Positions 2,622-18,962 of a DNA stretch of 29,490 nt are shown piece after piece. The DNA lies in IMG/VR virus record IMGVR_UViG_3300032213_002590, positions 1 through 29,490 of that record. One strand, written 5' to 3'. This stretch comes from a virus. The translations under genes and the position numbers were made by a program. Position 1 is the first letter of the stretch; each line of letters starts with the position of its first letter. The notes under the pieces were generated by a model. That model was not told the origin of the DNA. It did not search any database and was given only the letters and a program-made list of their open reading frames with translations.

Positions 2622-2927
2622 ATGAAAAAAAGCAATCGTAGCACATATAGTATGGTCGGTGTGGTGCGCTGGCTCATGGGCAAGCATCGTAGCAAGCCTA
2701 GCGAAACTGTGAATGCTGTTATTCCCCTGAGAGATAGAGAAGTGTCTTCGTTGTACGACGACAATCCCGATAGAACCAACCTGCGTGTTCGCAAACGTAG
2801 GCATGGGCGCAGCGCACCGATAGATCATGTAGCCCACGAAGAACGCCGACACGAACGTATCAACTTATCAAAGTGGCTTTGTGAACCAATACGAGATCAC
2901 AAAATCAAACCGTTACGGTTACGGTAA
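2622..2927 (+). CDS. small highly basic protein
   Basis: A 101-aa Arg/Lys/His-rich protein with no hydrophobic segment apart from a short VGVVRWLM stretch near the N-terminus. It includes clusters such as RVRKRRHGRS. It is the first gene after the terminator at 2543 and overlaps the next gene by 47 bp. No family was recognised. Basic composition would suit a nucleic-acid-binding or virion-internal role, which is inference. The long overlap leaves some doubt that both starts are right. Confidence 0.55.
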   Translation: MKKSNRSTYSMVGVVRWLMGKHRSKPSETVNAVIPLRDREVSSLYDDNPDRTNLRVRKRRHGRSAPIDHVAHEERRHERINLSKWLCEPIRDHKIKPLRLR

Positions 2928-3591
2928 CGTATGGAGTCCGCAGTATCGCGGTTCTGCAAGCGTAGTGGGTGGACTGAGCGAGCCTTCAGGTCGTTTTGGC
3001 TGTTTGATTGTTGGTACACGTCCTGATCCTGGCACAAATGAAGAATCGTATTGTGCAGTTTATAGTGCAGCTAACAGGGCAGCAAACTATTTATTCCCGT
3101 ATGCTCCACTGAGTGAGAGCTATGAATACGGTGATATATCATCGTTGTTCAATTACTATGTATCAGGTGTTCGCGCTAACGCTATCCCTGAATACTATCC
3201 CTACAAGAATGAAAAGGGAGTAGTAGTTAATAAACACAACATGGCGGCTGTAATCAAATGGCTACAAGAGCGTATTCCTGCTCTTAAGAAGTACGCCAAG
3301 CCAGATGAGTTTATCAATTATATGTTCTACCACGCAGCGAACCTGTATAATCAGGATATGAAGAACTTTCGTCCTGATTTGTTGTGGCCTATTACGATTG
3401 ATAGTCGCAATCCCGGTCAGCCAGTGATGACTGAGTACTTCAAGAAAAAACAAGGTGAGATTCGAGAAGAATCTAATAAGGGAACAGGCATTGTTTCTGG
3501 TGTAAACGACTTGCTTTCTAATGTTTTGACGGTCATCGTTGTTGGTACAGCGATTTATTTCCTTGCACCAATAATTTTCTCACGTCGCTAA
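2881..3591 (+). CDS. tail-anchored putative virion protein, 236 aa
   Basis: A 236-aa protein with a soluble, Tyr-rich N-terminal region and one C-terminal membrane segment at about residues 213-230, ending in the basic tail FSRR. The start is GTG 2881; no in-frame ATG exists near the N-terminus. The stop overlaps the next ATG by one base (TAATG). The topology (bulk on one side of a membrane, anchor at the extreme C-terminus) is shared by at least six other proteins here and suggests an internal-membrane virion protein. No enzyme motif was recognised. Confidence 0.8.
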   Translation: MNQYEITKSNRYGYGNVWSPQYRGSASVVGGLSEPSGRFGCLIVGTRPDPGTNEESYCAVYSAANRAANYLFPYAPLSESYEYGDISSLFNYYVSGVRANAIPEYYPYKNEKGVVVNKHNMAAVIKWLQERIPALKKYAKPDEFINYMFYHAANLYNQDMKNFRPDLLWPITIDSRNPGQPVMTEYFKKKQGEIREESNKGTGIVSGVNDLLSNVLTVIVVGTAIYFLAPIIFSRR

Positions 3592-4145
3592 TGAAGACGT
3601 TAGTAAGAAATATCGGCAATGGCGATTCAGCGATCATGAAAACACTTGATCACATGATTCGCCTGGCTCGACGTGACGCTAGAACACCAGATGTGAAGAC
3701 TTTGGCAAAGCGATTGGCTTCCTCATGTACGTCTAGTGACATTAACTACCAAGAATACTGCAAAGTAAAGGCTGCATTCGACTGGGTAGTAGACAATATC
3801 ACGTATCGTTTTGATCATCAACACGTACAAGATTGGATCGAAGTCGATAACCCTAATACCACGGAGTTCCTCATCGCACCAAAACACCAACTTGGTGTGC
3901 TTGTAGGTGACTGCGATGATATGTCAATGATGCTCGCTGCTCTTTTAGGTGCGATGGGCTTTAGTGTCAAGTATAAGGTTATCGCATGGCGTGGTCAAGA
4001 ATACACTCATGTGTATGTCGAGGTTCTAATGCCAAACGCTGACGGTGAATACCGTTGGGTTCCTATGGATCCTGTTGCTGGCAAAAACGGTTTTGGCTGG
4101 GAAAAAGCCCCTGTAATTCGCAAACATCACGTAGACGTATTCTGA
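3591..4145 (+). CDS. transglutaminase-fold cysteine peptidase
   Basis: A 184-aa protein with the papain-like/transglutaminase-core pattern. A helix (KVKAAFDWVVDNITY, 58-72) precedes the catalytic Cys in GDCDDMSMMLAALL (C108), followed by His in YTHVYVEV (H140) and Asp in WVPMDPV (D160), in the order Cys-His-Asp and with usual spacing. Proteins of this family occur in many phage structural regions and may process virion proteins or cut peptidoglycan peptides. It lies between two tail-anchored proteins. It has no signal peptide or anchor of its own, so it may act inside the host or be packaged. The fold call is strong; the substrate is inference. Confidence 0.9.
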   Translation: MKTLVRNIGNGDSAIMKTLDHMIRLARRDARTPDVKTLAKRLASSCTSSDINYQEYCKVKAAFDWVVDNITYRFDHQHVQDWIEVDNPNTTEFLIAPKHQLGVLVGDCDDMSMMLAALLGAMGFSVKYKVIAWRGQEYTHVYVEVLMPNADGEYRWVPMDPVAGKNGFGWEKAPVIRKHHVDVF

Positions 4146-4152
4146 GGTAATC

Positions 4153-4404
4153 ATGTGTAACTGCAATAATGGCGTTAATGGTCTTGGTATTGACATTGAT
4201 TGGACGAAAATCGGTGTACAACAAGCATCAGATATCATTAAAAGGCTGCCAAATGAAGATTTGGTGACGATTCTAAAGGGCTTGCCTATTGATATTCAGC
4301 GTCAAATCTGTCAACAAGGCGTTACGCAAGAGGTAACTAGCTACATCCCTTGGATCGTAGGTGGTGGTGCTGTATTGCTTGTAGCATATTTCTTGATGAA
4401 GTAA
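4153..4404 (+). CDS. small tail-anchored protein with NGVNGLG motif
   Basis: An 83-aa protein. It begins MCNCNNGVNGLG, then has a helical segment (ASDIIKRLPNEDLVTILKGL) and a C-terminal membrane segment (WIVGGGAVLLVAYFLMK, residues 67-83) that runs to the last residue, a Lys. GAGG precedes the ATG. The VNGLG motif recurs in the proteins at 6968 and 18612, and the Gly-rich anchor ending in aromatic residues plus Lys recurs in several neighbours. Likely a minor virion membrane protein (inference). Confidence 0.8.
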   Translation: MCNCNNGVNGLGIDIDWTKIGVQQASDIIKRLPNEDLVTILKGLPIDIQRQICQQGVTQEVTSYIPWIVGGGAVLLVAYFLMK

Positions 4405-4408
4405 CGCT

Positions 4409-4624
4409 ATGACTGTTAAGCAGTACCTACAAGGTGCAATCAATTACATGAAAGCGACGTTACGTCCTACTGCATCTATTGAAATCGCTGAGGATAGGTA
4501 CTCAAAATGCTTGCAGTGCGACAAAAGAGCCACCTTTCCTCGTGAAAAATGCTCGTTATGTAACTGCTATTTGCCTCAAAAGACGCTTTTGGTAGATCAA
4601 CACTGTCCCATAGGACGCTGGTAA
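4409..4624 (+). CDS. small zinc-ribbon protein
   Basis: A 71-aa protein with the pattern C-x2-C (KCLQCD, about residue 34), C-x2-C-x-C (KCSLCNCYL, about 48) and a final CPIGRW. This 'CxxC...CxxCxC...CPxGxW' arrangement is a recurring small zinc-binding module in phage structural regions. The function is not established. It lies in the middle of the structural operon, with its stop overlapping the next ATG by one base (TAATG). Confidence 0.8.
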   Translation: MTVKQYLQGAINYMKATLRPTASIEIAEDRYSKCLQCDKRATFPREKCSLCNCYLPQKTLLVDQHCPIGRW

Positions 4625-6024
4625 TGAAACTTGTAACGCTTGAAGACAACTTTGGATCGCTTTCTGCTCCTACTAAGGGATCAGGATTGATCACATCGTC
4701 ATCACCATCGCAGAATAGCCCTACATCGTTGCGTAACGAAGTTCCGCACTTCTCTTGGCTTAACAACGATGATGTGTTGTATGATGCACTTGGTAGCGTT
4801 AATACACGAGTGCCAGGATCAGCATTTGGACTAATAATGCCAGAAACAACTAATAATTCTGGCTTTGGATTGTTCCGCAATCGTCACGACCGACCTATCG
4901 TCGTCGTTACAGAGACATATTCAGGCGATAACACAAATCCGATGTTCCGAAACCTGCAAGAAACAGGTGCATGGGGCAACGATCCAGTCATTATTGAAGT
5001 ACCTCGTGGTGAGGGTGGTGGTTACATGGAACGTACCATCTTCCCAAATATCCGCAACAAGGTCATTCCAGCATTGACGCGATTAGAAAATGAGGGAGCG
5101 AGTAATCGTTTGATCCTTGTCAAGATCGTAGGACGTCCAAGAACGTGGCGATATTTCGGTGAATTGGCCTTGCAATACGCAGAACTTGCGGTAAACCTGG
5201 CTATGGACTACGCAGCACCGTATGTAGGAAAGTTCCTAGACATCCCCGTAAGCGATTTTCTGAATCTTAAGCCATTCATCACATCGCTTGTTAAGGATCA
5301 ACCAGTAGATATTGGAAGCCTGGCACAAGCTGCAAGCCTTGTAGTGCCGTCAGACATACGACCGACTCTCGGTAAGGCTGCTGAATTCTATCAGAACGTA
5401 CAGCAAGGTCAATATACGGCAGCAGCTAAAGACCTCGGTGTTGATCTTAGTGGTGTAGATCGTATTCTAAATGACTTTGCCTCTGATGTGCCTGACGTAG
5501 CTGCTAAGACAGCACAAGGTATTTACATCATGGACACGATCAACCAAGTTCGTGGATCAATTAGAAGTGGTACAGCCAAGCAAGAAATCATCCAGAATGG
5601 CACGATCACAAAGACACCTGCGCTACAGAATCTGATTCTGAGTGCTATGAATACCACTACAGCAGCAGTACCTCGTGCAGTCGAGATCAGCGGTCTAACA
5701 GCTAAAGAGACAAGCGATCTTCAGTCAGCAAAGGAATGGCGTGGTATCTATCAAATCGCACATGGCGTACCAGTGACACCATGTTCTCTTGATCGTATTG
5801 CAGTTCGTGGACTTGTCGAACGCGCACGTGACCTTTATCAAAAGGGTTACAAGACGATGAATATGCCTTCTATCGTTCCTGCTGATAAGCGTGATTGTTT
5901 CTCCGACGAAATCAGAGCGCAAACAGGAATATCAACGACTGGTGGAAGTGGCAAGATTTCTCCAGTGTTCTTGATGGGCGTAGCTGGAGCAGCAGGTCTC
6001 GCATATTTCGCATTGAGGAAGTAA
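4624..6024 (+). CDS. large tail-anchored putative virion protein, 466 aa
   Basis: The largest protein of this block. Residues 1-120 are Ser/Asn-rich and probably flexible; a mixed alpha/beta domain follows (RPIVVVTETYSGD, NRLILVKIVGRPRTW), then a long helical region at about 170-430. The C-terminus carries a GGSG linker and one Gly/Ala-rich membrane segment (SPVFLMGVAGAAGLAYFALRK, from about 446) that ends in Arg-Lys. No catalytic motif or known family was recognised. The anchor matches those of the proteins at 4153 and 6597, so I infer a membrane-associated virion or assembly protein. Confidence 0.85.
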   Translation: MKLVTLEDNFGSLSAPTKGSGLITSSSPSQNSPTSLRNEVPHFSWLNNDDVLYDALGSVNTRVPGSAFGLIMPETTNNSGFGLFRNRHDRPIVVVTETYSGDNTNPMFRNLQETGAWGNDPVIIEVPRGEGGGYMERTIFPNIRNKVIPALTRLENEGASNRLILVKIVGRPRTWRYFGELALQYAELAVNLAMDYAAPYVGKFLDIPVSDFLNLKPFITSLVKDQPVDIGSLAQAASLVVPSDIRPTLGKAAEFYQNVQQGQYTAAAKDLGVDLSGVDRILNDFASDVPDVAAKTAQGIYIMDTINQVRGSIRSGTAKQEIIQNGTITKTPALQNLILSAMNTTTAAVPRAVEISGLTAKETSDLQSAKEWRGIYQIAHGVPVTPCSLDRIAVRGLVERARDLYQKGYKTMNMPSIVPADKRDCFSDEIRAQTGISTTGGSGKISPVFLMGVAGAAGLAYFALRK

Positions 6025-6585: not shown

Positions 6586-6596
6586 TAGGTATCAAG

Positions 6597-6956
6597 ATGT
6601 ACGCTAATCCTAATCCATCACAACTCTACGCACAAGGCAAAACGCTTTCTGGTAGCGACTTCATGCCTACGACGTTTACACCGGGTACGCTTAAGGCAGA
6701 TTCAGTCAAGTATTGGGGAGATACAAAGAATCCTTTTCCAAAAGGAAAGATTAGTATTCCTGGTACAGTAGATCAGTATGATCGTGCAGTACCATACGTT
6801 GAGTATGCTCCAGGTAATGAAAACAGAAATATTTACCTGCAACAAGATGGTCAGAAGCAGCAAAATGCAACAACAGAGCAAGAAGGTATGTCACCGTGGC
6901 TCTGGGTAGCGATCGCAGCAGCAGGCGGACTTGTACTATACTACGTAATTAAATAA
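6597..6956 (+). CDS. tail-anchored putative virion protein, 119 aa
   Basis: A 119-aa protein. The soluble part is rich in Pro, Tyr and Asn; residues about 98-118 form one membrane segment (SPWLWVAIAAAGGLVLYYV) ending in Ile-Lys. This is the same C-terminal anchor plan as its neighbours. The frame is well separated from the flanking genes (11-bp gaps). Function unknown; inferred structural. Confidence 0.8.
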   Translation: MYANPNPSQLYAQGKTLSGSDFMPTTFTPGTLKADSVKYWGDTKNPFPKGKISIPGTVDQYDRAVPYVEYAPGNENRNIYLQQDGQKQQNATTEQEGMSPWLWVAIAAAGGLVLYYVIK

Positions 6957-6967
6957 AAGGAATCACA

Positions 6968-8005
6968 ATGTATTGCAACAAGATGCCAAAAACAGGCATG
7001 AGCAATCGTTACAGTAGTATGTCAGGTCTTTCAGATGCTACCTACAACGATCAGAAGTACACATTTACCTTCCCGCAAGACCTTGCAAACGCATTAGAAG
7101 CAGCAAGTCGCTTTCTTAATGCTAACTCCAATGGTCAGGTAGGTACATACACAGTAGCAAATGCACCACAATATCCAGCGGTGTATCAGATCAACAATAA
7201 GCTCTACGCAGTCACACAGTACACGGATAGCATTCCGCAACTAGCGCGACGTGTATTCGGCCCAGGTCAAGGTCTTGTATGGACACCAAGTGCTTTACAG
7301 CGTGGTATTGAGTTTCTTGCGGTAGGTGAGATCGTAGCAAAGACTACATCAGTAACACCGAAGACACCTGATACAGACTGTCCACCTCCAGACAACTGTA
7401 CTGAGAAGTGGGTAGAAAAGACACTCTACGTCAGCTCCAAGCCAAACAAGGATGCTATCGAGATTCCAGTAGCGTTCAAGAAATTGGTTTGCGAAGGTGA
7501 ATCAACTGAAGATCCACAAGTTGACTGCGAAGAATTGCTCAAGGCTCTTCAAGAATCGGTCAGCGAAGGTCAAGTTCCTGGTATGGTCAACGGACTCGGT
7601 GCTGTACCAGCAAATCTTCCACCAGATTGGTGTAAGGACTGTGAAGAAAAGCTCGTCAAGGCATCTGCTTACGTTACAGACTATGCAGTTAAAGGATCAA
7701 AGCCTTTTAAGGTAAAGGTAAAGGTTCTTGTCTGCGAAACATCGGCAGATCCTAAGATCGACTGCGAAGAAGTTGTCAAGGCTCTTGGCGCAGGTCTACG
7801 TTCTAAGAAGTCTAAGACAGTCAACGGATTGTCTGAAGCAACGATTGACACATCAAAATCTTCTGATTCTAAGTCTTCAGGCAAGGAGTTTGACGAAGAA
7901 GAAAAGCGTCTGACCCCTGAAAAGCAAGTACAAGCTGCTGGTTTCCCTTGGTGGATGTGGCTGGTTCTTGGTGGAACAGCAGTGTACGCTGCGCGAAAAC
8001 TGTAA
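6968..8005 (+). CDS. tail-anchored protein with two copies of a Cys domain
   Basis: A 345-aa protein; AAAGGA precedes the ATG. Residues 1-25 contain RYSSMSGLS. Residues about 30-125 form one domain (ARRVFGPGQG, FLAVGEI) that might be LysM-like, though weakly. Two copies of a small domain follow, at about 138-196 (C138, C144, C175, C187) and 222-277 (C222, C225, C256, C266), each ending in a DCEE..KAL helix. Each copy is followed by a VNGL[GS] motif (207-211, 285-289). After an acidic stretch comes the anchor FPWWMWLVLGGTAVYAARKL (326-345). The same Cys domain recurs in the protein at 23091. Probably an exposed virion protein anchored in membrane; function unknown. Confidence 0.85.
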   Translation: MYCNKMPKTGMSNRYSSMSGLSDATYNDQKYTFTFPQDLANALEAASRFLNANSNGQVGTYTVANAPQYPAVYQINNKLYAVTQYTDSIPQLARRVFGPGQGLVWTPSALQRGIEFLAVGEIVAKTTSVTPKTPDTDCPPPDNCTEKWVEKTLYVSSKPNKDAIEIPVAFKKLVCEGESTEDPQVDCEELLKALQESVSEGQVPGMVNGLGAVPANLPPDWCKDCEEKLVKASAYVTDYAVKGSKPFKVKVKVLVCETSADPKIDCEEVVKALGAGLRSKKSKTVNGLSEATIDTSKSSDSKSSGKEFDEEEKRLTPEKQVQAAGFPWWMWLVLGGTAVYAARKL

Positions 8006-8042: not shown

Positions 8043-8591
8043 ATGGCACGCAAGTTTACTCTTCAGATCAACTCGAATCTGAAGCACTCCATGTCAAAGC
8101 AAGAGCTGACCGATGACCTTTCGGCAGTACTTGCAGCAGCGACATGGGTTCTGCCCTCAACTCTCTTGAACCTGAATGGCTATGCAGGTCTCGGAGTCGC
8201 GTTCGCATCGACATGGGGCATCGGTGCTTTGTTCAACATCCCAGGTCTTCGCCGTGCAGCGTGGGCATTGGGTGCGGTTCATCTTGCTTATACAGCAGGT
8301 CGCAAGCCAATCGAAGATTTGCTTGGACAACCTCTCTGGCGCATGGATGAAACAGCTACAGTAGTAGAAGCAGCACCAGCGTCAACGACTACTGGTGGTC
8401 TCGCAGCAGCTATGCAAGCAGGCGCACGTATGACACAACTGCCAAACGGCACATACGCACCTAGCTATGATGGTATGATGGATCGTTTTGCACCAGAGTA
8501 TGCTTCGACAGGTCTCGAAGGCTATAGCGATGGTTACGATTCACCAAATGCTGTAAACAATGCTCCAATGTTCTCATCTAGCCCATTCTAA
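8043..8591 (+). CDS. multi-pass membrane protein, probable virion component
   Basis: A 182-aa protein. The N-terminus is basic (RKFTLQINSNLKHSMSK). Hydrophobic segments at about 26-45, 47-64 and 70-83 suggest two or three membrane passes, and the C-terminal 80 residues are hydrophilic and Ala/Ser/Tyr-rich. It is preceded by a 37-bp gap with a leader resembling those of the candidate capsid gene and the histone-like gene, so it may be abundantly made. No family was recognised. Confidence 0.8.
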   Translation: MARKFTLQINSNLKHSMSKQELTDDLSAVLAAATWVLPSTLLNLNGYAGLGVAFASTWGIGALFNIPGLRRAAWALGAVHLAYTAGRKPIEDLLGQPLWRMDETATVVEAAPASTTTGGLAAAMQAGARMTQLPNGTYAPSYDGMMDRFAPEYASTGLEGYSDGYDSPNAVNNAPMFSSSPF

Positions 8592-8642: not shown

Positions 8643-9257
8643 ATGTCGCAAATCGTTCCTGATGGTTTCGGACTACCACCAGCTGGTGCCACCGTCCAGA
8701 ATACATGGGCTATTGGTCATGACGCGGTTCTGATCAATCCAGCCACAGCTCTTGATTCGTCGTACACATTCTTTGATCAATCAGCATCGAAGAGTACGAC
8801 TTATCGCACGAGCGTTCTTTCAGTACTTGCACAACAACGTGCAGTGTACATCAAGGCTCTTCAGCTCAACCACAACCTTGCGTTCGCTGCAAACGAAAGC
8901 GAGCCAGCAGGTTCACAGACTGAAGGCTTTAACCGATTCTCTTTTGTCCAGATCACAATTCTTGGCAAGAGCGAAGACCGCTTCACACTTGAGGATCTCG
9001 TACCATTCTCCTTCATCAACGTGCAGGGAACGGTAACAGCTCAACTCAAGTACGCTCCGATTTTTGTTCTTCCAGAGCCAATCGAAGTTCCAAAGGGTGG
9101 TGACATTCAGATCACTCTTCTCCCGAACTCTGGCTACACGACAGCAGCATCGGCAGCAACAAATCCTCACCTTCCAAACGCTGGCTTCACGACATCAAAC
9201 CGTGGATTCAACGTTACGCTGAAGTACTGGGGTGCTCAGAGCCGTCCAACTGCCTAA
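8643..9257 (+). CDS. candidate major capsid protein (small all-beta protein)
   Basis: A 204-aa protein with no membrane segment and many alternating hydrophobic strands (FSFVQITILGK, VTAQLKYAPIFVL, GDIQITLLP, FNVTLKYWG). A Pro/Gly-rich turn (EPIEVPKGGDIQ) precedes a strand, as is common in jelly-roll capsid proteins. The context supports a capsid role: it is the first of three adjacent beta-rich proteins, it has its own leader, and a strong hairpin follows. No sequence-level family match is claimed. A spike, penton or cement protein is the main alternative. Confidence 0.55.
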   Translation: MSQIVPDGFGLPPAGATVQNTWAIGHDAVLINPATALDSSYTFFDQSASKSTTYRTSVLSVLAQQRAVYIKALQLNHNLAFAANESEPAGSQTEGFNRFSFVQITILGKSEDRFTLEDLVPFSFINVQGTVTAQLKYAPIFVLPEPIEVPKGGDIQITLLPNSGYTTAASAATNPHLPNAGFTTSNRGFNVTLKYWGAQSRPTA

Positions 9258-9385: not shown

Positions 9386-9811
9386 ATGGAACCGATTACT
9401 CTAATCCCAGCGTCGAATCTTTACGTGTGGACGCTGAAGAACAACATCGTATCAGCGTCAACACCAGCAGATACGACTTTCAAGACACCAGGATTTGATA
9501 TTGATGTGGTATCGGTTCGAGGTGCGTTTTATAACACCACGGGTGCTATCCTTCCAACCAGCACAAACCGTGATAAAATCATGCTGCAAATCGTAGCTGG
9601 TGATACGTCAGCGCAACTTGCATCTACAGCAGCAGATGTATTTGGCTTCTTGTCTATGTGGTATGATTCTAACAACAACGTGCCACAATTCACACTTGCA
9701 AGCAATACAAACTACCAAGTTGTTTTCTCTGTTGATACGTCAACGGCAGTATTCGGCGCAACATATCCGATTCGCTGCGAATTGCAGTTCATTGGCAAGA
9801 AGAAGCAATAA
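9386..9811 (+). CDS. small all-beta structural protein, 141 aa
   Basis: A 141-aa protein dominated by predicted strands (NLYVWTLKNNIVSAS, DKIMLQIVAG, YQVVFSVD, YPIRCELQFIG) with a short basic tail (KKKQ). It starts with ATG 9386 after the hairpin gap and ends 11 bp before the next gene. Size and strand density suit a jelly-roll or immunoglobulin-like capsid or decoration protein. The longer frame starting at 9232 overlaps the capsid candidate and is rejected. Function inferred from context only. Confidence 0.7.
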   Translation: MEPITLIPASNLYVWTLKNNIVSASTPADTTFKTPGFDIDVVSVRGAFYNTTGAILPTSTNRDKIMLQIVAGDTSAQLASTAADVFGFLSMWYDSNNNVPQFTLASNTNYQVVFSVDTSTAVFGATYPIRCELQFIGKKKQ

Positions 9812-10580: not shown

Positions 10581-11036
10581 ATGGCACTGACATCAAAGCA
10601 AGTAGCCGAACTCGCTAATGCAGCAGTTGAAACAATGCGCCCACGTTTCAAGAGCATTGATCCTAAAATGTGGAAGCGTGTACTTGTTGCACTCGCCTGG
10701 CATGAATCTAAGTTCGATCCAAAGGCTAAGAACAAAAAAAGTTCTGCACGAGGACTAATGCAGATTCTAAAAGGCACACAACTGGACATAGAGCGTCGTT
10801 TGCGTATGACACCACAAAGTAATGACAAGCTCGATGATCCAGGCTACAGTATGCTGTTAGCATCGTACTACTTGGCATGGTTGTACATCAACAAGGCGAA
10901 ACGCTCTTGGGATCGTGCGATCGTAGCCTACAATCAAGGTCATTACAACCTTTCACAAGCTGGAGAAACCTATCGACGCTTGATTTGGAAGGCTTACAAT
11001 GAGCAAGATTGGAATCAAACAAGCCCTTTCGCATAA
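10581..11036 (+). CDS. lytic transglycosylase (SLT-like)
   Basis: A 151-aa protein covering a lysozyme-fold soluble lytic transglycosylase domain. The catalytic Glu is in AWHESKFDP (E42), followed by ARGLMQI (56-62) and AYNQG (116-120), the usual three landmarks of the family in the right order. It would cleave the glycan strands of peptidoglycan. There is no signal peptide, and it sits inside the structural block, so it is more likely a virion-associated entry enzyme than the endolysin. The start lies 2 bp after the previous stop. Confidence 0.93.
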   Translation: MALTSKQVAELANAAVETMRPRFKSIDPKMWKRVLVALAWHESKFDPKAKNKKSSARGLMQILKGTQLDIERRLRMTPQSNDKLDDPGYSMLLASYYLAWLYINKAKRSWDRAIVAYNQGHYNLSQAGETYRRLIWKAYNEQDWNQTSPFA

Positions 11037-11055: not shown

Positions 11056-12033
11056 ATGAGCCTCAAAGAAATTATTGCTGAGAAGAACGGTACGGAAAAG
11101 CGCAAGAATCGCGTTAATCCTCTGCGTTTTCGCAAAGACGTACAGTATGAATATGGTGAGCTGGTCAAAGATTCGGCACTGGATAACCCAGAATGGCGAG
11201 TCAAGCCAGTTATTCGCCCAGGTCAGTACTTCTTGGATAAAGGCTGTAGGACGATCCCTGAGTATCTGGACACAAATCCAGACGCACTTCGTCCTGATCG
11301 CATCTTTACGTTCTACATGATCGGTATTGGTGGTCGTCGGACGTACTTGTATCAGCAAAATCCTGGCGTTCCACAAGCACCAGAAGCTCAAGGCATGGCA
11401 GTTATGAACGATCAAATCTCTGCTGTTCCTGCTCACATGACAATTCCACAAGCTGAACAACCACAAGATCAATCACAACCGATTGATTTGTCGATGATCG
11501 GCACTATGGTACGTGAATCGCTTGAGATTGTTAAAGAGACAAACAGAGACCTTACACGTCAACTTGAACAGTTCCGCACTCAAGAAAGCAATATGCGTCA
11601 GTACTACGAAGAACTCGTAGCAGGGATGCAGCGTGAATTGATCCAGACGAAGCAGGCTCTCGAAGAAGCTAAGGCAGAAAAGAAGGCCGTTGAGGATGAA
11701 TACAACATTCGCAACGAGTATCAGACCCAGGTTAACGGATTGCAGGACAAGATACGCGCAGATGAAGGCAGCCTAGGACTACGTGACATCATCGGCATAC
11801 TGCCTCACGTGATGCCTCTGATTACTCAGCTCTTCAACCGACCAGCGCAGCCACAGTATGTTCCTTACCCTACTAGCGGTAACGGTTATCCTCCTATGCA
11901 AGCAGGTGTCCCGGTGAATATGCCTGGTACGCCACAAAACGGAGCTTATCCGACGATGCAGACAATGGGCAACGGTATGCAATCGGTAAATCCGAATATG
12001 CCTACAGCCAATGTTGTGTCGAAGGAGGCCTAA
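11056..12033 (+). CDS. coiled-coil structural protein, 325 aa
   Basis: A 325-aa protein in three parts. Residues 1-100 are a basic, mixed domain. Residues about 150-235 form a long coiled coil (RQLEQFRTQESNMRQ, QTKQALEEAKAEKKAVEDE). After a short hydrophobic helix (IIGILPHVMPLITQLF, 245-260) the last 65 residues are Pro/Gly/Asn/Met-rich and disordered. The leader AGGAAGCCCCTCCT before the ATG resembles that of the gene at 16241. It could be a scaffold, spike-stalk or DNA-delivery protein; no family was recognised. Confidence 0.8.
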   Translation: MSLKEIIAEKNGTEKRKNRVNPLRFRKDVQYEYGELVKDSALDNPEWRVKPVIRPGQYFLDKGCRTIPEYLDTNPDALRPDRIFTFYMIGIGGRRTYLYQQNPGVPQAPEAQGMAVMNDQISAVPAHMTIPQAEQPQDQSQPIDLSMIGTMVRESLEIVKETNRDLTRQLEQFRTQESNMRQYYEELVAGMQRELIQTKQALEEAKAEKKAVEDEYNIRNEYQTQVNGLQDKIRADEGSLGLRDIIGILPHVMPLITQLFNRPAQPQYVPYPTSGNGYPPMQAGVPVNMPGTPQNGAYPTMQTMGNGMQSVNPNMPTANVVSKEA

Positions 12034-12351: not shown

Positions 12352-12434
12352 AGCAAGTCGGACACATCGTGATCCGTATTCTTGCTGCTGCTGGAGTGCT
12401 TTGGGGTAGTCTAAGCCTTATCTCAGCGTGGTAA
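12321..12434 (+). CDS. tiny membrane protein, 37 aa
   Basis: A short frame starting ATGGCTTTTCGC with a basic N-terminus (MAFRTKVQGLKQVGH) and one hydrophobic segment (IVIRILAAAGVLWGSLSLIS). It overlaps the preceding gene by 31 bp and ends 2 bp before the next ATG at 12437. It fills an otherwise empty 85-bp gap, and charge plus topology fit a single-pass membrane peptide, so I think it is real. Possible roles are a minor virion membrane protein or part of a lysis set. Confidence 0.55.
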   Translation: MAFRTKVQGLKQVGHIVIRILAAAGVLWGSLSLISAW

Positions 12435-12436
12435 TT

Positions 12437-12778
12437 ATGTCAGATAGCCGTCACATTCGTCGCAACCTGCGTTCTTTCCTCCGTATTTCTGCTCTGCTTG
12501 CTACAATCATTGTAGTAGGCTCCGTGATCGGGGACTCAGAAGCTATGCGTGTGCTGTTTATCGCTGCACAGGCCGTATTTGCTACCACTGCGATCGCTAC
12601 AATGGCTCAATGGGCGTTCACTAGCCTGAATTTCACTGAGCAGCGGTGCAAGCAGTACGAAGAATCCGTTGATGAAATCATTGTCGCAGCCCGTGTACGA
12701 ACACTGGGCATGATTTACATTGGAGTGTCGATTGTGGTAGGCCTGGTCTACTTCGCGACCTACAGGGGCGCGTTCTGA
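12437..12778 (+). CDS. three-pass membrane protein, holin-like candidate
   Basis: A 113-aa protein with a basic N-terminus (SDSRHIRRNLRSF), hydrophobic segments at about 16-33, 39-61 and 90-108, and a short polar loop. ATG 12437 is preferred to GTG 12428. Its stop overlaps the following CHAP gene (TGATGG). A small multi-pass membrane protein immediately upstream of a cell-wall hydrolase is the usual layout for a holin, but it may equally be a virion membrane protein in this membrane-protein-rich block. Confidence 0.7.
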   Translation: MSDSRHIRRNLRSFLRISALLATIIVVGSVIGDSEAMRVLFIAAQAVFATTAIATMAQWAFTSLNFTEQRCKQYEESVDEIIVAARVRTLGMIYIGVSIVVGLVYFATYRGAF

Positions 12779-13404
12779 TGGACTTTCGTCGCCCACTGAA
12801 GCAAATACGCCTTGCAATGTACATCATTGCAGGGCTTTTAGTGCTTTTGTGGGGTACAGTCATGGCTATCGCATCTGTTCCTCGCTACTCGGCTCAAATG
12901 CCGCCTAAGTATGTTGAACAGGTCATAAAAAATGGATTATCCGACGTAGGGAAAATCGAATATACTGGACGCAACGACGGCAAGCATATTGACAGATATG
13001 CACGAACCGTTGGTATGCCTTTAGGTTCGGCTTACTGCTACGCTGCTATCTATACCTGGTCTAGCGATGCAGCTCATTGCCAGGCACTTGGCAACCCACT
13101 TCCTCGTACTGGCTCGACACAGACGGCATTCACTGTCGCTTCTAAAACATTTGCAGCCTCTAAGTACACGTCGGCTCGTCGTGGGGACATTCTGATATGG
13201 CGCATACCACGTAAGTGGCTTGGTCATGCAGCTCTTATCACTCGTGTACGTCCAGATGGTCTGCTAGAGACGATTGAGGCTAACACATCACGCGGTGGCA
13301 GTGGTGACCAGCGCGATGGTGGTGGCGTATGGACTAAACGTAGATTTATCAATCGAGGACTCGGACGTATGATCGTCCGTGGTCTTATCGGAATAGGCGC
13401 ATAA
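12778..13404 (+). CDS. membrane-anchored CHAP-like peptidoglycan amidase/peptidase
   Basis: A 208-aa protein. Residues about 13-33 form an N-terminal signal-anchor. The CHAP/NlpC-like domain follows, with catalytic Cys in GSAYCYAA (C87), the GDILIW strand (136-141), His in GHAAL (H150) and Glu in IEANTS (E167). It should cut peptide bonds or the amide bond in peptidoglycan from the periplasmic side. It follows the holin-like gene directly. Because the anchor is N-terminal it differs from the second CHAP protein at 17021. Either may be the endolysin; the other may serve entry. Confidence 0.88.
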   Translation: MDFRRPLKQIRLAMYIIAGLLVLLWGTVMAIASVPRYSAQMPPKYVEQVIKNGLSDVGKIEYTGRNDGKHIDRYARTVGMPLGSAYCYAAIYTWSSDAAHCQALGNPLPRTGSTQTAFTVASKTFAASKYTSARRGDILIWRIPRKWLGHAALITRVRPDGLLETIEANTSRGGSGDQRDGGGVWTKRRFINRGLGRMIVRGLIGIGA

Positions 13405-14666
13405 TGGAAAGAGGCATATTTGTCCCGATGATGATTCCTGCCTTCCCAGACAACCCTTGTGGTGGTGGTGGGACAGGTACGGTCACGTCGGTAGCACTTA
13501 CGGCTCCTGCGATTTTCGCAGTGGCAAATAGTCCAGTGACAACGGCTGGATCGCTGGATATTACGCTTGTTAATCAAAGCCCGAACCGTGTATTTGCATC
13601 TCCTACGACGGCTCCAGCAGCTCCACCGACGTTCAGGACGCTGGTAGCTGCTGATCTTGGCACTGGTACGGCTACAGTCAACACGGTTCTTCGTGGTGAC
13701 ATGACCTGGGGTGACGCAACTGCTATTGTAGGCTGGACACCAAGCCTCAATACAAGCTCGCCTAACAACACCGTAAACGCTTCGCGCTTGCTTGTCAATA
13801 GCACAAGCGTCAATGGCGATGCGGTGATCCAGCCTAAAGGCACTGGGGCATTGATTGGTGATCTGCCTGATGGCACGTCTGCTGGTGGCAATAAGCGAGG
13901 TACGTATGCAGTGGATTTACAGCTTGATCGTACCAATGCTAATCAAGTTGCTTTAGGTAATTATTCAGCTCTGATTGCTGGTTATCAAAATCGTGCAGAG
14001 GGTGTGTACTCAGCTGTTCTCGGTGGTGTGTCCAATTTTGTTAATGGATCATCGAGTATTATTCTTGGTGGATCTAGTAATACGATCGCATCAAACAGCG
14101 GAGCCATATTGTCTGGTTCTAGCCATAGCATAACAGCTGAATTTGCAACCATTGTCGGCGGAGGCGGAGGCGTTGCTAACGCATACAATCAAAAGGTATA
14201 TTCTGCCGCAGCTGGTCAGGCAAGTGGGACGAGACAGCAGGAGGAATACATTGTCACTCGCTCGACAACTTCTGGTATTGATGGTAATACCTTAGTAGAA
14301 TTGACCTGCAATGGTTCTGCTCCGTTATTTGCAAGCACTCCCAATCAAATAAGCGTTAGCAATAATGCCGTATATGCTTTTAGGGGTATAGTAGCTGCCT
14401 ATGGAGCAGACACAAATGCTGGTACAAGATACACTTACTGCGCTGAATTTAAGGGAGTTGTCCGTAGGTTGAACGCTGCGACTATCACCTTAGTCGGTTG
14501 TCCTACTGTAACTGTTTTAGCAGATGATAGTTCATCAAAACTTGTATTTGATATACAGGTTGATACAGTTAATAACGCGCTAAGGTTGCTAGGACAAAAT
14601 AATGTTGGCATTAATGCCTATGGCGTTTGGAACGCGCACGTTCAACTCACTAAAATTGGCTTCTAA
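13404..14666 (+). CDS. spike/fibre protein with YadA-head-like repeats (copy 1)
   Basis: A 420-aa protein. The N-terminus has GGGGTGTVTSVALTAP, typical of phage fibre proteins. A segment at about 119-188 (PNNTVNASRLLV, QPKGTGAL, GGNKRGTYAVDLQ) is nearly the same in the next gene. Residues about 185-255 are YadA/Hep_Hag-type repeats (GNYSALIAGYQN, GVYSAVLGGVSN, SSSIILGGSSN), which form trimeric left-handed beta-rolls. The C-terminal 140 residues are beta-rich and probably the receptor-binding or trimerisation domain. Likely host adsorption. The opposite strand is open over long stretches but codes for nothing recognisable. Confidence 0.88.
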   Translation: MERGIFVPMMIPAFPDNPCGGGGTGTVTSVALTAPAIFAVANSPVTTAGSLDITLVNQSPNRVFASPTTAPAAPPTFRTLVAADLGTGTATVNTVLRGDMTWGDATAIVGWTPSLNTSSPNNTVNASRLLVNSTSVNGDAVIQPKGTGALIGDLPDGTSAGGNKRGTYAVDLQLDRTNANQVALGNYSALIAGYQNRAEGVYSAVLGGVSNFVNGSSSIILGGSSNTIASNSGAILSGSSHSITAEFATIVGGGGGVANAYNQKVYSAAAGQASGTRQQEEYIVTRSTTSGIDGNTLVELTCNGSAPLFASTPNQISVSNNAVYAFRGIVAAYGADTNAGTRYTYCAEFKGVVRRLNAATITLVGCPTVTVLADDSSSKLVFDIQVDTVNNALRLLGQNNVGINAYGVWNAHVQLTKIGF

Positions 14667-14668
14667 TC

Positions 14669-15958
14669 ATGCCTAAAGTAAATTACGTTCAGCCGTGTGG
14701 CGGATCTGACATTACTATTACGTACCCTTCGACGAGCGGTACGCTTGCACTGAGCGGTGCTGGATTGACTGGTTTCATTCCTTCGCAGAACACTGCTGCT
14801 CCGAATAACACTGTAAACGCATCACGTTTGCTTGTCGATGCTACAACTGCAAATGCTGATATAGTCTTGCAGCCTAAAGGATCGGGTGCATTCTTAGCAC
14901 AGCTGCCTGATAACGCCACTACGGGTGGTAACAAGCGTGGTTCGTATGCAGTTGATTTGCAAACCCAACGTACAGCTGCTAACCAAGTCGCTGCTGGTAA
15001 TAATAGCGTTATTGGTGGTGGTTACGCTAATCGTATTGACGGTCTGGGTACGGCAAGCGTTATTGCTGGTGGTAACTCTAACTTGCTACAGAACGCTGGT
15101 TATTCATCAATTCTTGGTGGTAACGCTAATGCGGTTTATGCTCAAAATTCATCCGTTGTTGGTGGTTCAGGAAACTATTGCAATAATCAATACTCTTCGG
15201 TCTTGGGTGGTTTTACTAATGCCAACCAAGGATATGTCGCTACTCTTATTTCTGGTGGCAACAATACAATCAACTCAGGTGCAGATTACGGATTGATTGG
15301 CTCAGGTACTAATAATAACGTTAACGCAGCGTATTCAAGTATCATCAACGGATCATCAAATAACAACAGCGCATCATACGTAAGTATAGTCACAGGTCAA
15401 TTTAATACAGCATCCACGGGTTCTTCTACCTATGGTCTTATCGCTGGTGCTTCTTGTGGCGTTTATCACGAAGGTGGGATAGCATTTGGTGTTGCGGCGG
15501 GTACAACTACAAACCACCAAAAAGTTTGGAGTTCAGGACTAGCTACTGGCAATTCAGGGGACGTACAACAAGCCGAGCATCATTTGTACACAACGACCAC
15601 TAATGGATCTAATGTAAATCTGACCATTGGAGGAGCCACGTTATCAAATACAACGTCTGTAGCGGTTCCCCTGAATGGCACATTTTTATTCAAGGCTATT
15701 GTTTCTTGCAAGAGGTCTCCGACTTCTACAGCTGACTTTGGAGCGTGGGAGGTAACTGGTCTAGCAGTCAATCTTGCTGGTACAGTTACACTCTTTGGTA
15801 CAACCGTCACTATTATCCACAGAACAAACGGCGGATACACGGTGAATGCCGTCGCAGACAACACAAACAAAACTGTCAATATCGTAGTACAGGGTGTTGC
15901 TGGTCATACTATCATTTGGTCGGCCTACGTAAACACTATTCGTTCAGTAACTGCATAA
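14669..15958 (+). CDS. spike/fibre protein with YadA-head-like repeats (copy 2)
   Basis: A 429-aa paralogue of the preceding protein, starting 2 bp after it. It shares the PNNTVNASRLLV...QPKGSGAF...GGNKRGSYAVDLQ segment (about 45-110). It has a longer run of head repeats at about 108-265 (GYSSILGGNAN, QYSSVLGGFTN, AYSSIINGSSN) and a C-terminal beta domain that differs from copy 1 but keeps a common layout (QKVWSSGLATG versus QKVYSAAAGQA). It lacks the GTVTSVALTAP start. Two different receptor-binding ends on a shared stem would broaden host range or form a heteromeric spike. Confidence 0.88.
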   Translation: MPKVNYVQPCGGSDITITYPSTSGTLALSGAGLTGFIPSQNTAAPNNTVNASRLLVDATTANADIVLQPKGSGAFLAQLPDNATTGGNKRGSYAVDLQTQRTAANQVAAGNNSVIGGGYANRIDGLGTASVIAGGNSNLLQNAGYSSILGGNANAVYAQNSSVVGGSGNYCNNQYSSVLGGFTNANQGYVATLISGGNNTINSGADYGLIGSGTNNNVNAAYSSIINGSSNNNSASYVSIVTGQFNTASTGSSTYGLIAGASCGVYHEGGIAFGVAAGTTTNHQKVWSSGLATGNSGDVQQAEHHLYTTTTNGSNVNLTIGGATLSNTTSVAVPLNGTFLFKAIVSCKRSPTSTADFGAWEVTGLAVNLAGTVTLFGTTVTIIHRTNGGYTVNAVADNTNKTVNIVVQGVAGHTIIWSAYVNTIRSVTA

Positions 15959-15962
15959 AACA

Positions 15963-16217: not shown

Positions 16218-16240
16218 TCACTAATCATAGAGAAGCCCCT

Positions 16241-16738: not shown

Positions 16739-17021
16739 CAATTCTACAGTCTTTGAGCTGTTGTGGTCTCTCGTACAGTCGATCGCTACGGCACTTCCTA
16801 TTGCTGGGGGTATCTACATGGCTTGGGTTAAGCACACCAAGATGATGGTAACGTCCTTTACGGACGTTATTGCTGCTGCCGTTACACGTCGCGACGACTG
16901 GCACGACATTCGTGCGCGTATTGACGTAATCGAGGAACGGCAGCATGAAGATGCGGAAACCCTACGACGTATCGACGAGCGCATTGACGAGATTTACAAA
17001 CTGCTGATCAAGTCCCGATAA
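16731..17021 (+). CDS. single-pass membrane protein with coiled coil, holin candidate
   Basis: A 96-aa protein starting at ATG 16731 (a TTG at 16716 would also be in frame). Residues about 10-33 form one membrane segment (VQSIATALPIAGGIYMAWV), followed by a charged coiled-coil tail (IDVIEERQHEDAETLRRIDERID). This plan occurs in small phage holins and holin-associated proteins. It lies directly upstream of a CHAP hydrolase (stop/start share one base), which favours a lysis role; a spike-base protein is the alternative. Confidence 0.75.
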   Translation: MDSNSTVFELLWSLVQSIATALPIAGGIYMAWVKHTKMMVTSFTDVIAAAVTRRDDWHDIRARIDVIEERQHEDAETLRRIDERIDEIYKLLIKSR

Positions 17022-17608
17022 TGGTTCCTGTTAAGACTATAGAAGAAGTAGCAGCTGAATGGTACGCTCGTAACTGTGTAGAGGAACGAGCTAATCGTGG
17101 AGTATGCGTAGACAAGATTCACGAACTATTCGATCCTAAGTGGATCACAAACAAACGCGCTGAAGCCTGGTGTGCGAAGTTCGTATGGGTTGTCTATGAA
17201 GAGGCTGCACGTCGATCTGGAGTCAAGAATCCACTGCCTCGGACGGCTGGAGCGCGTTTAATGCGCGATATGTCCATCAAAGAAGGTTTACGAGTCGATA
17301 AAAAGCCACAGGATGGTGATGTTTTCTATCGTACATCGGAATCTCCCGGCTCAAGTGGTCACGTTGGTATCGTTACAGATGTAAAGGCTGATGGCATTAC
17401 GACTGTAGAAGGCAACTTGAGCAATCGAGTTGCCTATTACCATTACGATTGGGACAAGATCGAGTCTCCTAAGTGGAACTTCAGCTTCATTCACGCAGCG
17501 GACGATTCACAAAGTGGCAGCGGTACTGTGTTAGCAAGCACAAACGGGCTTCTTGGGCTTGTCTTGATCGGTACTGCTGCCCTTTGGTATTTCAATAGGA
17601 AGAAGTGA
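17021..17608 (+). CDS. CHAP-like peptidoglycan hydrolase with C-terminal membrane anchor
   Basis: A 195-aa protein with a CHAP domain: catalytic Cys in AWCAKFVW (C51), QDGDVFY (97-103), His in GHVGIV (H114) and Glu in TVEGN (E130). After a Ser/Gly linker it ends in a membrane segment (about 173-191) and FNRKK. The C-terminal anchor is the same plan as in the putative virion membrane proteins, so this could be a virion-bound entry enzyme, while the flanking holin-like and Rz-like genes point to lysis. The enzyme fold is well supported; role undecided. Confidence 0.9.
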   Translation: MVPVKTIEEVAAEWYARNCVEERANRGVCVDKIHELFDPKWITNKRAEAWCAKFVWVVYEEAARRSGVKNPLPRTAGARLMRDMSIKEGLRVDKKPQDGDVFYRTSESPGSSGHVGIVTDVKADGITTVEGNLSNRVAYYHYDWDKIESPKWNFSFIHAADDSQSGSGTVLASTNGLLGLVLIGTAALWYFNRKK

Positions 17609-18159
17609 TCGTTACGATGCGTCTAACACAGACACATATTACGATCCTTTTGATGCTTGCCGTATTATTTCTCGGCATTATCCTCGGTCGTTGTAGCACT
17701 GACCTAGGTCACAGAGTCATCGTTGAGGAAAAGACCATACCAGTTCAGGTACGAATCCCTCAGATTGAGATACAAAAGACGGTCGATACAATACGAATCG
17801 TTCACACAAGCCCTGATAGCGTGGCTATCCAGCGGCTTATTGGCGTTCGTGATAGCCTTCGCAAAGAGCTTGCCAAGCGTAATGTCGGGGTTTTATTTGG
17901 TCTCGATACCATCACACGCACCCGTGATACGATCCAAGTGACCTGCGATGAGATAGCTCGTCGGGTTACGGCTCGAATTCGCTTTGGTGTGCGTGATACG
18001 GCAGTCAAATACCTTGATACAACGATGCACCTACCTGCTAAGAGCGCAAAACTGGGGCTTTCAGGTGGTTTCGGAGCTGCAATAGTCCTGGAGAACAACA
18101 TACCAGTGCTGAGACCAGCAATTTTCGTTGGAATAACATATTCTCTTTTCAACTTCTGA
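17605..18159 (+). CDS. N-terminally anchored periplasmic protein (spanin-position candidate)
   Basis: A 184-aa protein (180 aa from the alternative ATG at 17617). GTG 17605 overlaps the upstream stop and has AGGA just before it. One N-terminal membrane segment (TILLMLAVLFLGIILGRC) is followed by strand- and helix-rich sequence with repeated 'RDT' stretches (LDTITRTRDTI, VRDTAVKYLDTT). It occupies the place of an Rz-like i-spanin after a holin/hydrolase pair, but it lacks the long Ala/Glu-rich coiled coil of classical Rz, and no o-spanin lipobox gene was found. Role uncertain. Confidence 0.75.
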   Translation: MIVTMRLTQTHITILLMLAVLFLGIILGRCSTDLGHRVIVEEKTIPVQVRIPQIEIQKTVDTIRIVHTSPDSVAIQRLIGVRDSLRKELAKRNVGVLFGLDTITRTRDTIQVTCDEIARRVTARIRFGVRDTAVKYLDTTMHLPAKSAKLGLSGGFGAAIVLENNIPVLRPAIFVGITYSLFNF

Positions 18160-18166
18160 GATTACA

Positions 18167-18574
18167 ATGCGATATTCTAATACCTATGGCCTAAAAGGAC
18201 TTGGTTACACTACACTAAATGATTGTGGATGTTCTGATACTACACTAAGTGGAATCAATAAGAATATAGATGATGTAGTTGATGCTATCAATGATAAGTA
18301 TGACATTTGGGTCGTTGCAATCGAGCGCAAGGATCATATTATCATTGACAGCCTAGACTTAATGGATGAAAAGCGCAACGTAGGCCTCGAAGAGAAGGTT
18401 ATTAAAAAGGTAATGCGTTATGCTAAAAATCAAAACAAGCAAGTTTTTGTCAATCCTCGAACTCCATTTTTCTACGGCGGTAAGATAAACAGCAGTCGAT
18501 TTTGGAAATCTTTGGGCTTCGTAGATAACAAGTATCGCTTCAAGGATCGTTATACATTCGTGTATATCCCATAA
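18167..18574 (+). CDS. stand-alone GNAT-like protein, degenerate
   Basis: A 135-aa protein that aligns by eye with residues about 558-678 of the giant protein at 19378: LNDC..C..D..LS, then a GNAT-like core (DHIIIDSLDLM, KVIKKVMRYAKNQNKQVFV, FWKSLGFV). The acetyl-CoA-binding loop reads RNVGLE (70-75), whereas the giant protein has RNEGIG; loss of the second Gly suggests that it no longer binds acetyl-CoA in the usual way. The N-terminus carries RYSNTYGLKGLG, close to motifs in the structural proteins. It may be a structural reuse of the fold. Confidence 0.75.
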   Translation: MRYSNTYGLKGLGYTTLNDCGCSDTTLSGINKNIDDVVDAINDKYDIWVVAIERKDHIIIDSLDLMDEKRNVGLEEKVIKKVMRYAKNQNKQVFVNPRTPFFYGGKINSSRFWKSLGFVDNKYRFKDRYTFVYIP

Positions 18575-18611
18575 AAATGAAATCAATCAACTTTCAGAAT
18601 GTGAGGTAACA

Positions 18612-18962
18612 ATGGGCTACGGACGCTCATACGGAATGTCGGGTACGGCTGTACCTGAATGGCAACAGGGTCTGAAGAAGTGCAAAGAGACAATGAGCTG
18701 CACGAAGGGTCGCTGTATGTCGTACGATGGCGCAGTGAACAAATGCACTTGTGTCAAATGCGATTCTGAACTGGTCAATAGGCCTAACTCTGGCATTACT
18801 CCTCGCTACTCCAGTAGCGACAATATGCCTGCGCGTTTTGGCAAGGTGACCGGGGTAAATGGCCTCGGTGAGAGCTTCCTCGAATCCATCGGTAACGTAG
18901 CGAACCTGGCGATCATTGGACTCGCCATCTACGGTGGATTTTGCCTGGCAAAGAAATTGTAA
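18612..18962 (+). CDS. Cys-rich tail-anchored protein with VNGLG motif
   Basis: A 116-aa protein with six cysteines between residues about 24 and 56 (CKETMSCTKGRC, CTCVKC), which could bind zinc or form disulfides. A Ser-rich stretch (PRYSSSDN) and GVNGLG follow. The final membrane segment (VANLAIIGLAIYGGFCLAKKL) again ends in basic residues. GAGG precedes the ATG. Same RYSS + NGLG + anchor plan as the protein at 6968; probably a virion membrane protein. Confidence 0.8.
   Translation: MGYGRSYGMSGTAVPEWQQGLKKCKETMSCTKGRCMSYDGAVNKCTCVKCDSELVNRPNSGITPRYSSSDNMPARFGKVTGVNGLGESFLESIGNVANLAIIGLAIYGGFCLAKKL

What the first reader, a model, noticed from the sequence alone, without database searches (positions are those of the whole stretch)
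2881..18962. Seven proteins share a C-terminal membrane anchor: signs of a membrane-containing virion
Proteins at 2881, 4153, 4624, 6597, 6968, 17021 and 18612 each end in one Gly/Ala-rich hydrophobic segment with aromatic residues and then Lys/Arg at the very C-terminus (AYFLMK, AYFALRK, LYYVIK, VYAARKL, WYFNRKK, CLAKKL, FSRR). Multi-pass proteins are added at 8043 and 12437. A structural block with so many tail-anchored proteins is unusual for tailed phages and typical of phages with an internal lipid membrane.
Basis: partly seen in the sequence, partly recalled or inferred. Interest (0 to 1): 0.78.

Follow-up and report, generated by a model that had tools for sequence, protein, structure and literature searches.

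The report
Relative of orphan membrane-containing phage SSIP-1
This 29.5-kb genome looks like a tailless bacterial virus that wraps its DNA in an inner lipid membrane, and it links a long-isolated oddity, Salisaeta phage SSIP-1, to a family of proviruses in Bacteroidota genomes.

Summary
A blind rule (one hydrophobic segment near the C-terminus, K/R in the last 8 residues) run on 45 called genes picks exactly the seven named proteins (shuffles 0.12; five tailed phages 3/307); a second scale finds six. Two terminase families and one portal family have no match in the window, three relatives or SSIP-1, while a tailed control rings. The transglutaminase-fold gene and the ATPase domain match gp34 and gp40 of Salisaeta icosahedral phage 1 (E 5e-12 and 2e-14), a membrane-containing tailless phage still unclassified, whose gp34, 36, 39, 41, 52 and 54 carry such anchors. 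Two close IMG/VR genomes share the gene order. Proviruses in five Bacteroidota-phylum genomes and one IMG/VR contig carry the window's capsid-region genes; one also carries gp34, gp40 and gp52 relatives. Not shown: the capsid fold (both AlphaFold2 jobs failed, no useful PDB sequence hit) and the membrane itself. Correction: the multi-pass protein at 12437 is better read as a holin.

The parts
2881..3591 (+). 236-aa protein with C-terminal membrane anchor (AIYFLAPIIFSRR)
   Evidence: relatives in G001, G002 and the G521 provirus, where it is also C-anchored
3591..4145 (+). Transglutaminase-fold cysteine peptidase; relative of SSIP-1 gp34
   Evidence: Pfam Transglut_core 1.4e-10; phmmer to gp34 4.6e-12; Cys108, His140, Asp160 invariant in 6 of 6 aligned sequences
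4153..4404 (+). 83-aa C-anchored protein (GGGAVLLVAYFLMK)
4624..6024 (+). 466-aa C-anchored protein (AYFALRK); 1000-1800-aa relatives stand in its place in some proviruses and L080
   Evidence: relatives
6597..6956 (+). 119-aa C-anchored protein (SPWLWVAIAAAGGLVLYYVIK)
   Evidence: anchored relative in the G627 provirus (E 5e-4); none found in G001
6968..8005 (+). 345-aa C-anchored protein (PWWMWLVLGGTAVYAARKL)
   Evidence: GES scale; missed by Kyte-Doolittle
8043..8591 (+). Hydrophobic protein with 2 weak segments, immediately before the capsid-candidate genes; same place as SSIP-1 gp44
   Evidence: relatives in G475, G521, G627 proviruses; gp44 position
8643..9257 (+). Capsid-protein candidate 1 (204 aa), 84-96% identical in G001/G002
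   Evidence: provirus relatives; fold not determined
9386..9811 (+). Capsid-protein candidate 2 (141 aa)
9823..10578 (+). Capsid-protein candidate 3 (251 aa), 78-98% identical in G001/G002; relatives in 5 of 296 genomes of the phylum
   Evidence: fold not determined
10581..11036 (+). Lytic transglycosylase (SLT)
   Evidence: Pfam SLT 1.9e-21
11056..12033 (+). 325-aa coiled-coil-like protein, conserved next to the capsid candidates
12428..12778 (+). 3-TM protein, probable holin (ATG at 12437)
   Evidence: placement before the CHAP gene (inference)
12778..13404 (+). CHAP protein with N-terminal membrane segment, probable endolysin
   Evidence: CHAP 2.3e-5, just under the curated cut-off; PHROG endolysin 1e-7
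13404..15958 (+). Two repeat-rich proteins (420 and 429 aa), variable between relatives; candidate receptor-binding spikes
   Evidence: 69% and 50% in G002; in G001 only the first 23 aa of the first; function inferred
17021..17608 (+). CHAP peptidoglycan hydrolase with C-terminal membrane anchor; candidate entry enzyme
   Evidence: CHAP 6.6e-10; anchor; two C-anchored relatives in the G521 provirus
18612..18962 (+). 116-aa C-anchored protein (IYGGFCLAKKL)
18996..19298 (+). Very Lys/Ala-rich basic protein, candidate DNA condenser
   Evidence: sequence; function inferred
19378..23097 (+). 1239-aa multidomain protein; C-terminal P-loop ATPase related to SSIP-1 gp40
   Evidence: phmmer to gp40 1.6e-14; GNAT-like and ParB-C-terminal-like regions
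24952..26676 (-). D5-type (SF3) primase/helicase
   Evidence: Pfam D5_N and DUF5906 above cut-off; PHROG DNA primase 4e-51

Best explanation
The window is a nearly complete genome of a tailless icosahedral phage with an internal lipid membrane, in the same lineage as SSIP-1. SHOWN: seven C-anchored proteins without signal peptides; a conserved late block (transglutaminase-fold peptidase, anchored proteins, 2-TM protein, three capsid candidates, transglycosylase, coiled-coil protein, anchored CHAP enzyme, ATPase) shared with two close relatives and, in part, with proviruses and SSIP-1; no hit to the tailed-phage packaging families searched. INFERRED: the anchored proteins insert by their C-terminus into the host inner membrane; capsid proteins assemble on the cytoplasmic side of a patch enriched in them, so that their large N-terminal domains lie between membrane and shell while the short K/R tails face the vesicle interior and the DNA; the gp40-type ATPase packages the DNA; the CHAP protein 17021, held in the viral membrane, opens the wall at entry; 12428 and 12778 lyse the cell at exit; the transglutaminase-fold enzyme is a maturation protease or a wall-peptide endopeptidase.
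For: Blind anchor count 7/45 against 3/307 in tailed phages. SSIP-1 homology: gp34 4.6e-12 and gp40 1.6e-14. SSIP-1 has six C-anchored annotated proteins under one or other scale: gp34, 36, 39, 41, 52, 54; two of them, gp34 and gp41, are annotated as virion structural proteins. FLiP, another membrane phage, has 2/15 anchored proteins and both are annotated structural, one as a lytic enzyme. Provirus in G627: gp34, gp40 and gp52 relatives together with window-type 8043, 9386, 9823, 6597 and 12034. G521 and G464 proviruses add SSIP-1 gp43 relatives. No terminase or portal. SSIP-1: T=49, 100 nm, circular dsDNA of 44 kb (passage); gp40 predicted as packaging ATPase (passage); membrane-containing (passages).
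Against: No capsid fold: AlphaFold2 pLDDT 28.8 and 34.4; no useful PDB sequence hits. The window's capsid candidates do not reach SSIP-1 gp45-48 by sequence: nothing significant in the 27 hhalign comparisons and HMM searches. PRD1 and P23-77, true membrane viruses, show no such anchors, so the anchor signature is not general. Lipid can only be inferred. The ATPase is RecA-like rather than clearly of the FtsK/HerA type (Pfam FtsK_SpoIIIE 0.14, Pox_A32 0.021).
Confidence: 0.85

Rival explanations
1. A tailed phage whose membrane-anchored proteins serve lysis, superinfection exclusion or host takeover, with a terminase and portal too divergent to detect.
For: Some PHROGs matched by 10581 and 17021 carry tail labels (baseplate hub/tail lysozyme 1.2e-8, tape measure 2.4e-5).
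Against: Those matches cover only wall-lysing domains. Two terminase families and one portal family are absent from five records while the tailed control 11b rings. PHROG positive controls on 11b and B40-8 terminase and portal rang. gp34 and gp40 relatives point to SSIP-1.
Confidence: 0.06
2. A tailless SSIP-1-lineage virus whose C-anchored proteins mainly act in the host membrane during infection, so that few of the seven are in the virion.
For: No virion proteomics exists for this virus; any membrane-targeted host-takeover protein could have such an anchor.
Against: All seven lie in the late block. The C-anchored gp34 and gp41 of SSIP-1 and both C-anchored FLiP proteins are annotated as virion structural proteins.
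Confidence: 0.07
3. The C-termini are sorting signals of the CTERM/sortase type (motif, hydrophobic segment, basic tail) cleaved by a host enzyme, not permanent anchors.
For: Tripartite look; recurring Gly and Pro-x-Trp before the segment.
Against: Such substrates need an N-terminal signal peptide (established knowledge, recalled); 7 of 7 lack a hydrophobic N-terminus. SSIP-1 and FLiP have similar tails on structural proteins.
Confidence: 0.02

Closest known systems
[quoted passage not shown]
   Same: gp34 (transglutaminase-fold) and gp40 (ATPase) relatives; set of C-anchored late proteins; hydrophobic gene directly before ~200-aa capsid-region genes; no terminase/portal hits
   Different: Window is 29.5 kb against 43.8 kb; the ATPase is the C-terminal domain of a 1239-aa protein instead of a 320-aa protein; the TGase has no C-terminal anchor here but has one in gp34; capsid candidates not alignable by sequence
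Flavobacterium phage FLiP (Finnlakeviridae)
   Same: Membrane-containing phage of a Flavobacterium host; C-anchored structural proteins including a lytic enzyme
   Different: 9.2-kb ssDNA genome with one double-jelly-roll MCP (literature); no gene homology was tested beyond the anchor rule
Helvetiavirae, e.g. Thermus phage P23-77 (two single-jelly-roll MCPs, internal membrane)
   Same: Expected architecture: tailless, membrane inside, small capsid proteins; SSIP-1 is grouped with it in a review passage
   Different: P23-77 has 0/27 C-anchored genes; jelly-roll fold not shown here
Bacteroidia proviruses with a TGase-C10/C11-C4-C5-C7/C8-C2-coiled coil-...-ATPase module
   Same: Same TGase and ATPase families, similar gene order, ~235 + ~130 + ~130-155-aa genes in the capsid place
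   Different: Capsid-place genes have no significant sequence match to the window's

Membership tests
SSIP-1 lineage | Relative of structural transglutaminase-fold protein gp34 | tested here: met
   phmmer 4.6e-12; catalytic triad invariant in 6 of 6
SSIP-1 lineage | Relative of ATPase gp40 | tested here: met
   phmmer 1.6e-14; best phage-collection hit, E 7e-11
SSIP-1 lineage | Several C-anchored late proteins | tested here: met
   window 7/45; SSIP-1 gp34, 36, 39, 41, 52, 54 across two scales
SSIP-1 lineage | Homologous capsid-region proteins (gp45-48) | tested here: inconclusive
   27 hhalign comparisons with SSIP-1 and provirus clusters, best E 0.018-0.022, not significant
Helvetiavirae / single-jelly-roll viruses | Two single-jelly-roll major capsid proteins | tested here: inconclusive
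   AlphaFold2 failed twice; PDB sequence searches gave nothing useful
Helvetiavirae / single-jelly-roll viruses | Internal lipid membrane in the virion | not testable with these tools
   Needs particles
Caudoviricetes | Terminase large subunit and portal | tested here: not met
   PF03237, PF04466, PF04860: 0 matches in window, G001, G002, G004, SSIP-1; 11b rings
Caudoviricetes | HK97-fold capsid and tail proteins by PHROGs | tested here: not met
   40 of 49 listed proteins scanned; 11b capsid protein rings as control
Finnlakeviridae | ~9-kb genome | tested here: not met
   29.5-kb record; MCP homology to FLiP not tested
CTERM/sortase substrates | N-terminal signal peptide on the substrate | tested here: not met
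   0 of 7 with a hydrophobic N-terminus

The most novel reading that the evidence does not exclude
SSIP-1 is not an orphan from brine but the one isolated member of a large lineage of membrane-containing tailless viruses and integrated proviruses of Bacteroidota, defined by a gp34-type transglutaminase-fold peptidase plus a gp40-type RecA-like packaging ATPase, with capsid proteins diverged beyond sequence recognition. The peptidase may be a maturation protease acting on Gly-(Leu/Met/Ile)-Gly sites in the anchored and internal proteins, in parallel with the adenovirus-type proteases of other jelly-roll viruses.
Probability: 0.5. Interest if true: 0.8.

Novelty: new variant of a known kind. Interest (0 to 1): 0.62.

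Why it matters
SSIP-1 has been described as a phage whose genome hardly resembles anything in GenBank (review passage) and is still filed under unclassified dsDNA phages. The window, its two close relatives and the bridging proviruses give it a family, suggest that membrane-containing tailless viruses are an under-counted part of Bacteroidota viromes (lipid phages are lost by chloroform and density protocols, passage), and supply host genomes and a gene set from which capsid, packaging ATPase and entry enzyme can be tested directly.

Tried and rejected
AlphaFold2 on 8643 (3 sequences) and 9823 (4 sequences): pLDDT 28.8 and 34.4, unusable; no fold search was run on them.

PDB sequence searches with profiles of the three capsid candidates: 0 hits, except one at E 0.48.

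hhalign of window capsid candidates against provirus clusters and SSIP-1: nothing significant. An earlier larger run hit the time limit without output.

Gly-(Leu/Met/Ile)-Gly as protease site: enrichment only mild (window late 12 vs 6.3, SSIP-1 late 13 vs 7.7, G521 15 vs 9.8; fraction of 200 shuffles reaching these 0.03-0.045; G475 0.255; Bacteroidia proviruses L060 0.05 and L061 0.155; tailed phages 0.45-0.88). It was tested after being noticed, so it is a lead only.

Transglutaminase-fold profile against the PDB: only weak hits, PeiW at E 0.042 and a 1403-aa transglutaminase-like chain at 0.07, so protease and wall-peptide endopeptidase stay open.

ATPase profile in 395 Bacteroidia genomes: 329 ring at 1e-6, mostly RadA-like frames of about 450-470 aa; about 45 genomes (my hand count of listed rows) have E at or below 1e-20. 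The ATPase alone does not prove a provirus: a transglutaminase gene lay in the same fetched stretch in 11 of 20; several stretches were short.

The original SSIP-1 paper is not held; SSIP-1 facts come from passages of PMC4958249, PMC6356626, PMC6260650 and PMC4124505. PMC9719478 and PMC5099504: passages seen, nothing used. Other papers: search listings only. No title or abstract start in those listings describes SSIP-1-like proviruses in Bacteroidota; most subscription journals are not held.
Full report
WHAT IS THERE. The window is a whole virus record of 29,490 bases. Its ends share an exact 122-base repeat, which lies within a 20-bp tandem array; the related contigs G001, G002 and G004 have exact end repeats of 127, 127 and 144 bases. 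This is what circular or end-repeated complete genomes give, although in the window the tandem array makes the closure less certain. Genes run mostly on the plus strand, with a minus-strand group at 23.8-27.4 kb holding a D5-type primase/helicase.

THE OBSERVATION. The seven C-termini are as described. On the Kyte-Doolittle scale it found six, against 0.55 and 1 of 306; the 6968 segment falls below that cut-off. None of the seven has a hydrophobic N-terminus, so they look tail-anchored rather than secreted. Relatives of all seven exist in G002 and of six in G001. The rule flags six anchors in G002 and five in G001 (in one search one of G001's five is an antisense ORF).

NOT A TAILED PHAGE BY ANY TEST RUN. 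Terminase families PF03237 and PF04466 and portal family PF04860 have no match in the window, G001, G002, G004 or SSIP-1, whereas Flavobacterium phage 11b rings in all three, for PF03237 below the curated cut-off. PHROGs on 40 of 49 listed proteins returned no terminase, portal, HK97 capsid or tail-tube family; nine small or overlapping ORFs were not scanned. Tail-labelled PHROGs matched only the transglycosylase domain of 10581 and the CHAP domain of 17021. As controls, the terminase and portal of 11b and B40-8 and the capsid protein of 11b were all recognised by PHROGs. SSIP-1 gp45-47 also gave no PHROG hit, so silence is expected for this lineage.

LINK TO SSIP-1. The best phage-collection match of the ATPase domain at the C-terminus of 19378-23097 is SSIP-1 gp40, E 7e-11. 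Direct comparison gives gp40 1.6e-14 and gp34 4.6e-12 for 3591-4145. The presumed catalytic Cys, His and Asp of the transglutaminase fold are invariant in six of six aligned sequences. SSIP-1 has its own set of C-anchored proteins: gp34, gp39, gp41, gp52 and gp54 on one scale, gp36, gp39, gp52 and gp54 on the other (each run also flagged a short unannotated ORF at 3575; gp52 and gp54 in both runs were found as ORFs with extended starts). gp34 and gp41 are annotated as structural. In FLiP both flagged proteins are annotated as structural, one as a putative lytic enzyme. PRD1 and P23-77 have none: the signature belongs to some membrane phages only.

THE BRIDGE. A profile of 8643 found relatives in 2 of 395 genomes of the phylum of a Bacteroidia MAG. 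A profile of 9823 found 5 of 296, two of which were in the profile. Their neighbourhoods repeat the window's late block. G521 has relatives of 2881, 3591, 8043, 8643, 9823, 12034 and two of 17021, plus an SSIP-1 gp43 relative at 7.5e-34, next to genes with the secretion-sorting domain Por_Secre_tail. G475 has relatives of 3591, 4624, 8043, 8643, 9823, 11056, 12778, 13404 and 17605, with a tyrosine integrase beside the block. G464 has 3591, 8643, 9823, 12778, 17605 and gp43 and gp34 relatives. G627 has 3591, 4624, 6597, 8043, 9386, 9823, 12034 and 23418 relatives together with SSIP-1 gp34 (2.7e-17), gp40 (3.1e-22) and the anchored gp52 (7.2e-6). G478 resembles the IMG/VR contig L080. So window-type capsid-region genes and SSIP-1-type genes occur in one element. 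Taxon names of these genomes were not available; they were drawn from the phylum of the Bacteroidia MAG. I call them proviruses because the block sits inside long genome contigs (123-373 kb); excision was not tested.

A WIDER PROVIRUS GROUP. The ATPase profile in 395 Bacteroidia genomes and the stretches fetched around 20 of its hits show a module of transglutaminase, then genes of about 200, 235, 130, 130-155 and 106 aa, a coiled-coil-place gene and others, then the ATPase, in 13 loci including two of MAG SW_35. The capsid-place genes of these do not match the window's by sequence, so their membership is a hypothesis based on gene order and two shared genes.

HOW IT MOST LIKELY WORKS. Shown by sequence: tail anchors, enzyme domains, gene order, homology. 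Inferred: an anchored-protein patch in the host membrane is wrapped by the capsid proteins (candidates 8643, 9386, 9823), leaving a vesicle inside the shell; DNA is pumped in by the gp40-type ATPase, perhaps condensed by the basic protein 18996; variable repeat proteins 13404 and 14669 bind the host; the anchored CHAP enzyme 17021 opens the wall at entry, as a counterpart of the anchored transglycosylase-like gp54 of SSIP-1 (assigned by eye) and the anchored lytic enzyme of FLiP; 12428 and 12778 act as holin and endolysin at exit.

LIMITS. The capsid fold is undetermined, no particle exists, and lipid is inferred. The literature facts on SSIP-1 are from review passages, because the original paper is not held.

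Noticed in passing
window 27670-27718; G001 contig 13436-13482: Four exact copies of an 11-bp unit (GCAGGTTTTCC) stand near the replication genes in both genomes, absent from G002: possible iterons of a replication origin.
   Followed up: partly
window 1-262 and 29298-29490: A 20-bp tandem array at both ends of the record; its core was not found in G001 or G002.
   Followed up: partly
window 27831-27860 and 28184-28213: A perfect 30-nt direct repeat at the starts of two neighbouring small ORFs; possible duplicated promoter or leader.
   Followed up: no
window 19378-23097: A 1239-aa protein with GNAT-like, ParB-C-terminal-like and ATPase regions; with SSIP-1 gp43 it resembles giant multidomain 'polyvalent' phage proteins (name recalled). 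PHROG families of the GNAT-like part are also matched by the small protein 18167-18574.
   Followed up: partly
window 7499-7549 and 7736-7786; 23079-23393: Internal repeat in the anchored protein 6968-8005, and weak similarity of 23079-23393 to the 6968 relatives in G001 and G002: a repeated small domain.
   Followed up: no
L040 (G003 contig C55): MAG SW_35 carries a second transglutaminase-module locus besides the one in L026.
   Followed up: partly
L020/L042-L043 (IMGVR_UViG_3300028835_001661): A 35.5-kb record with two transglutaminase matches, a small-gene trio in the capsid place and a Lys/Arg-rich basic protein; looks like a more distant member but has no ATPase-profile match.
   Followed up: partly
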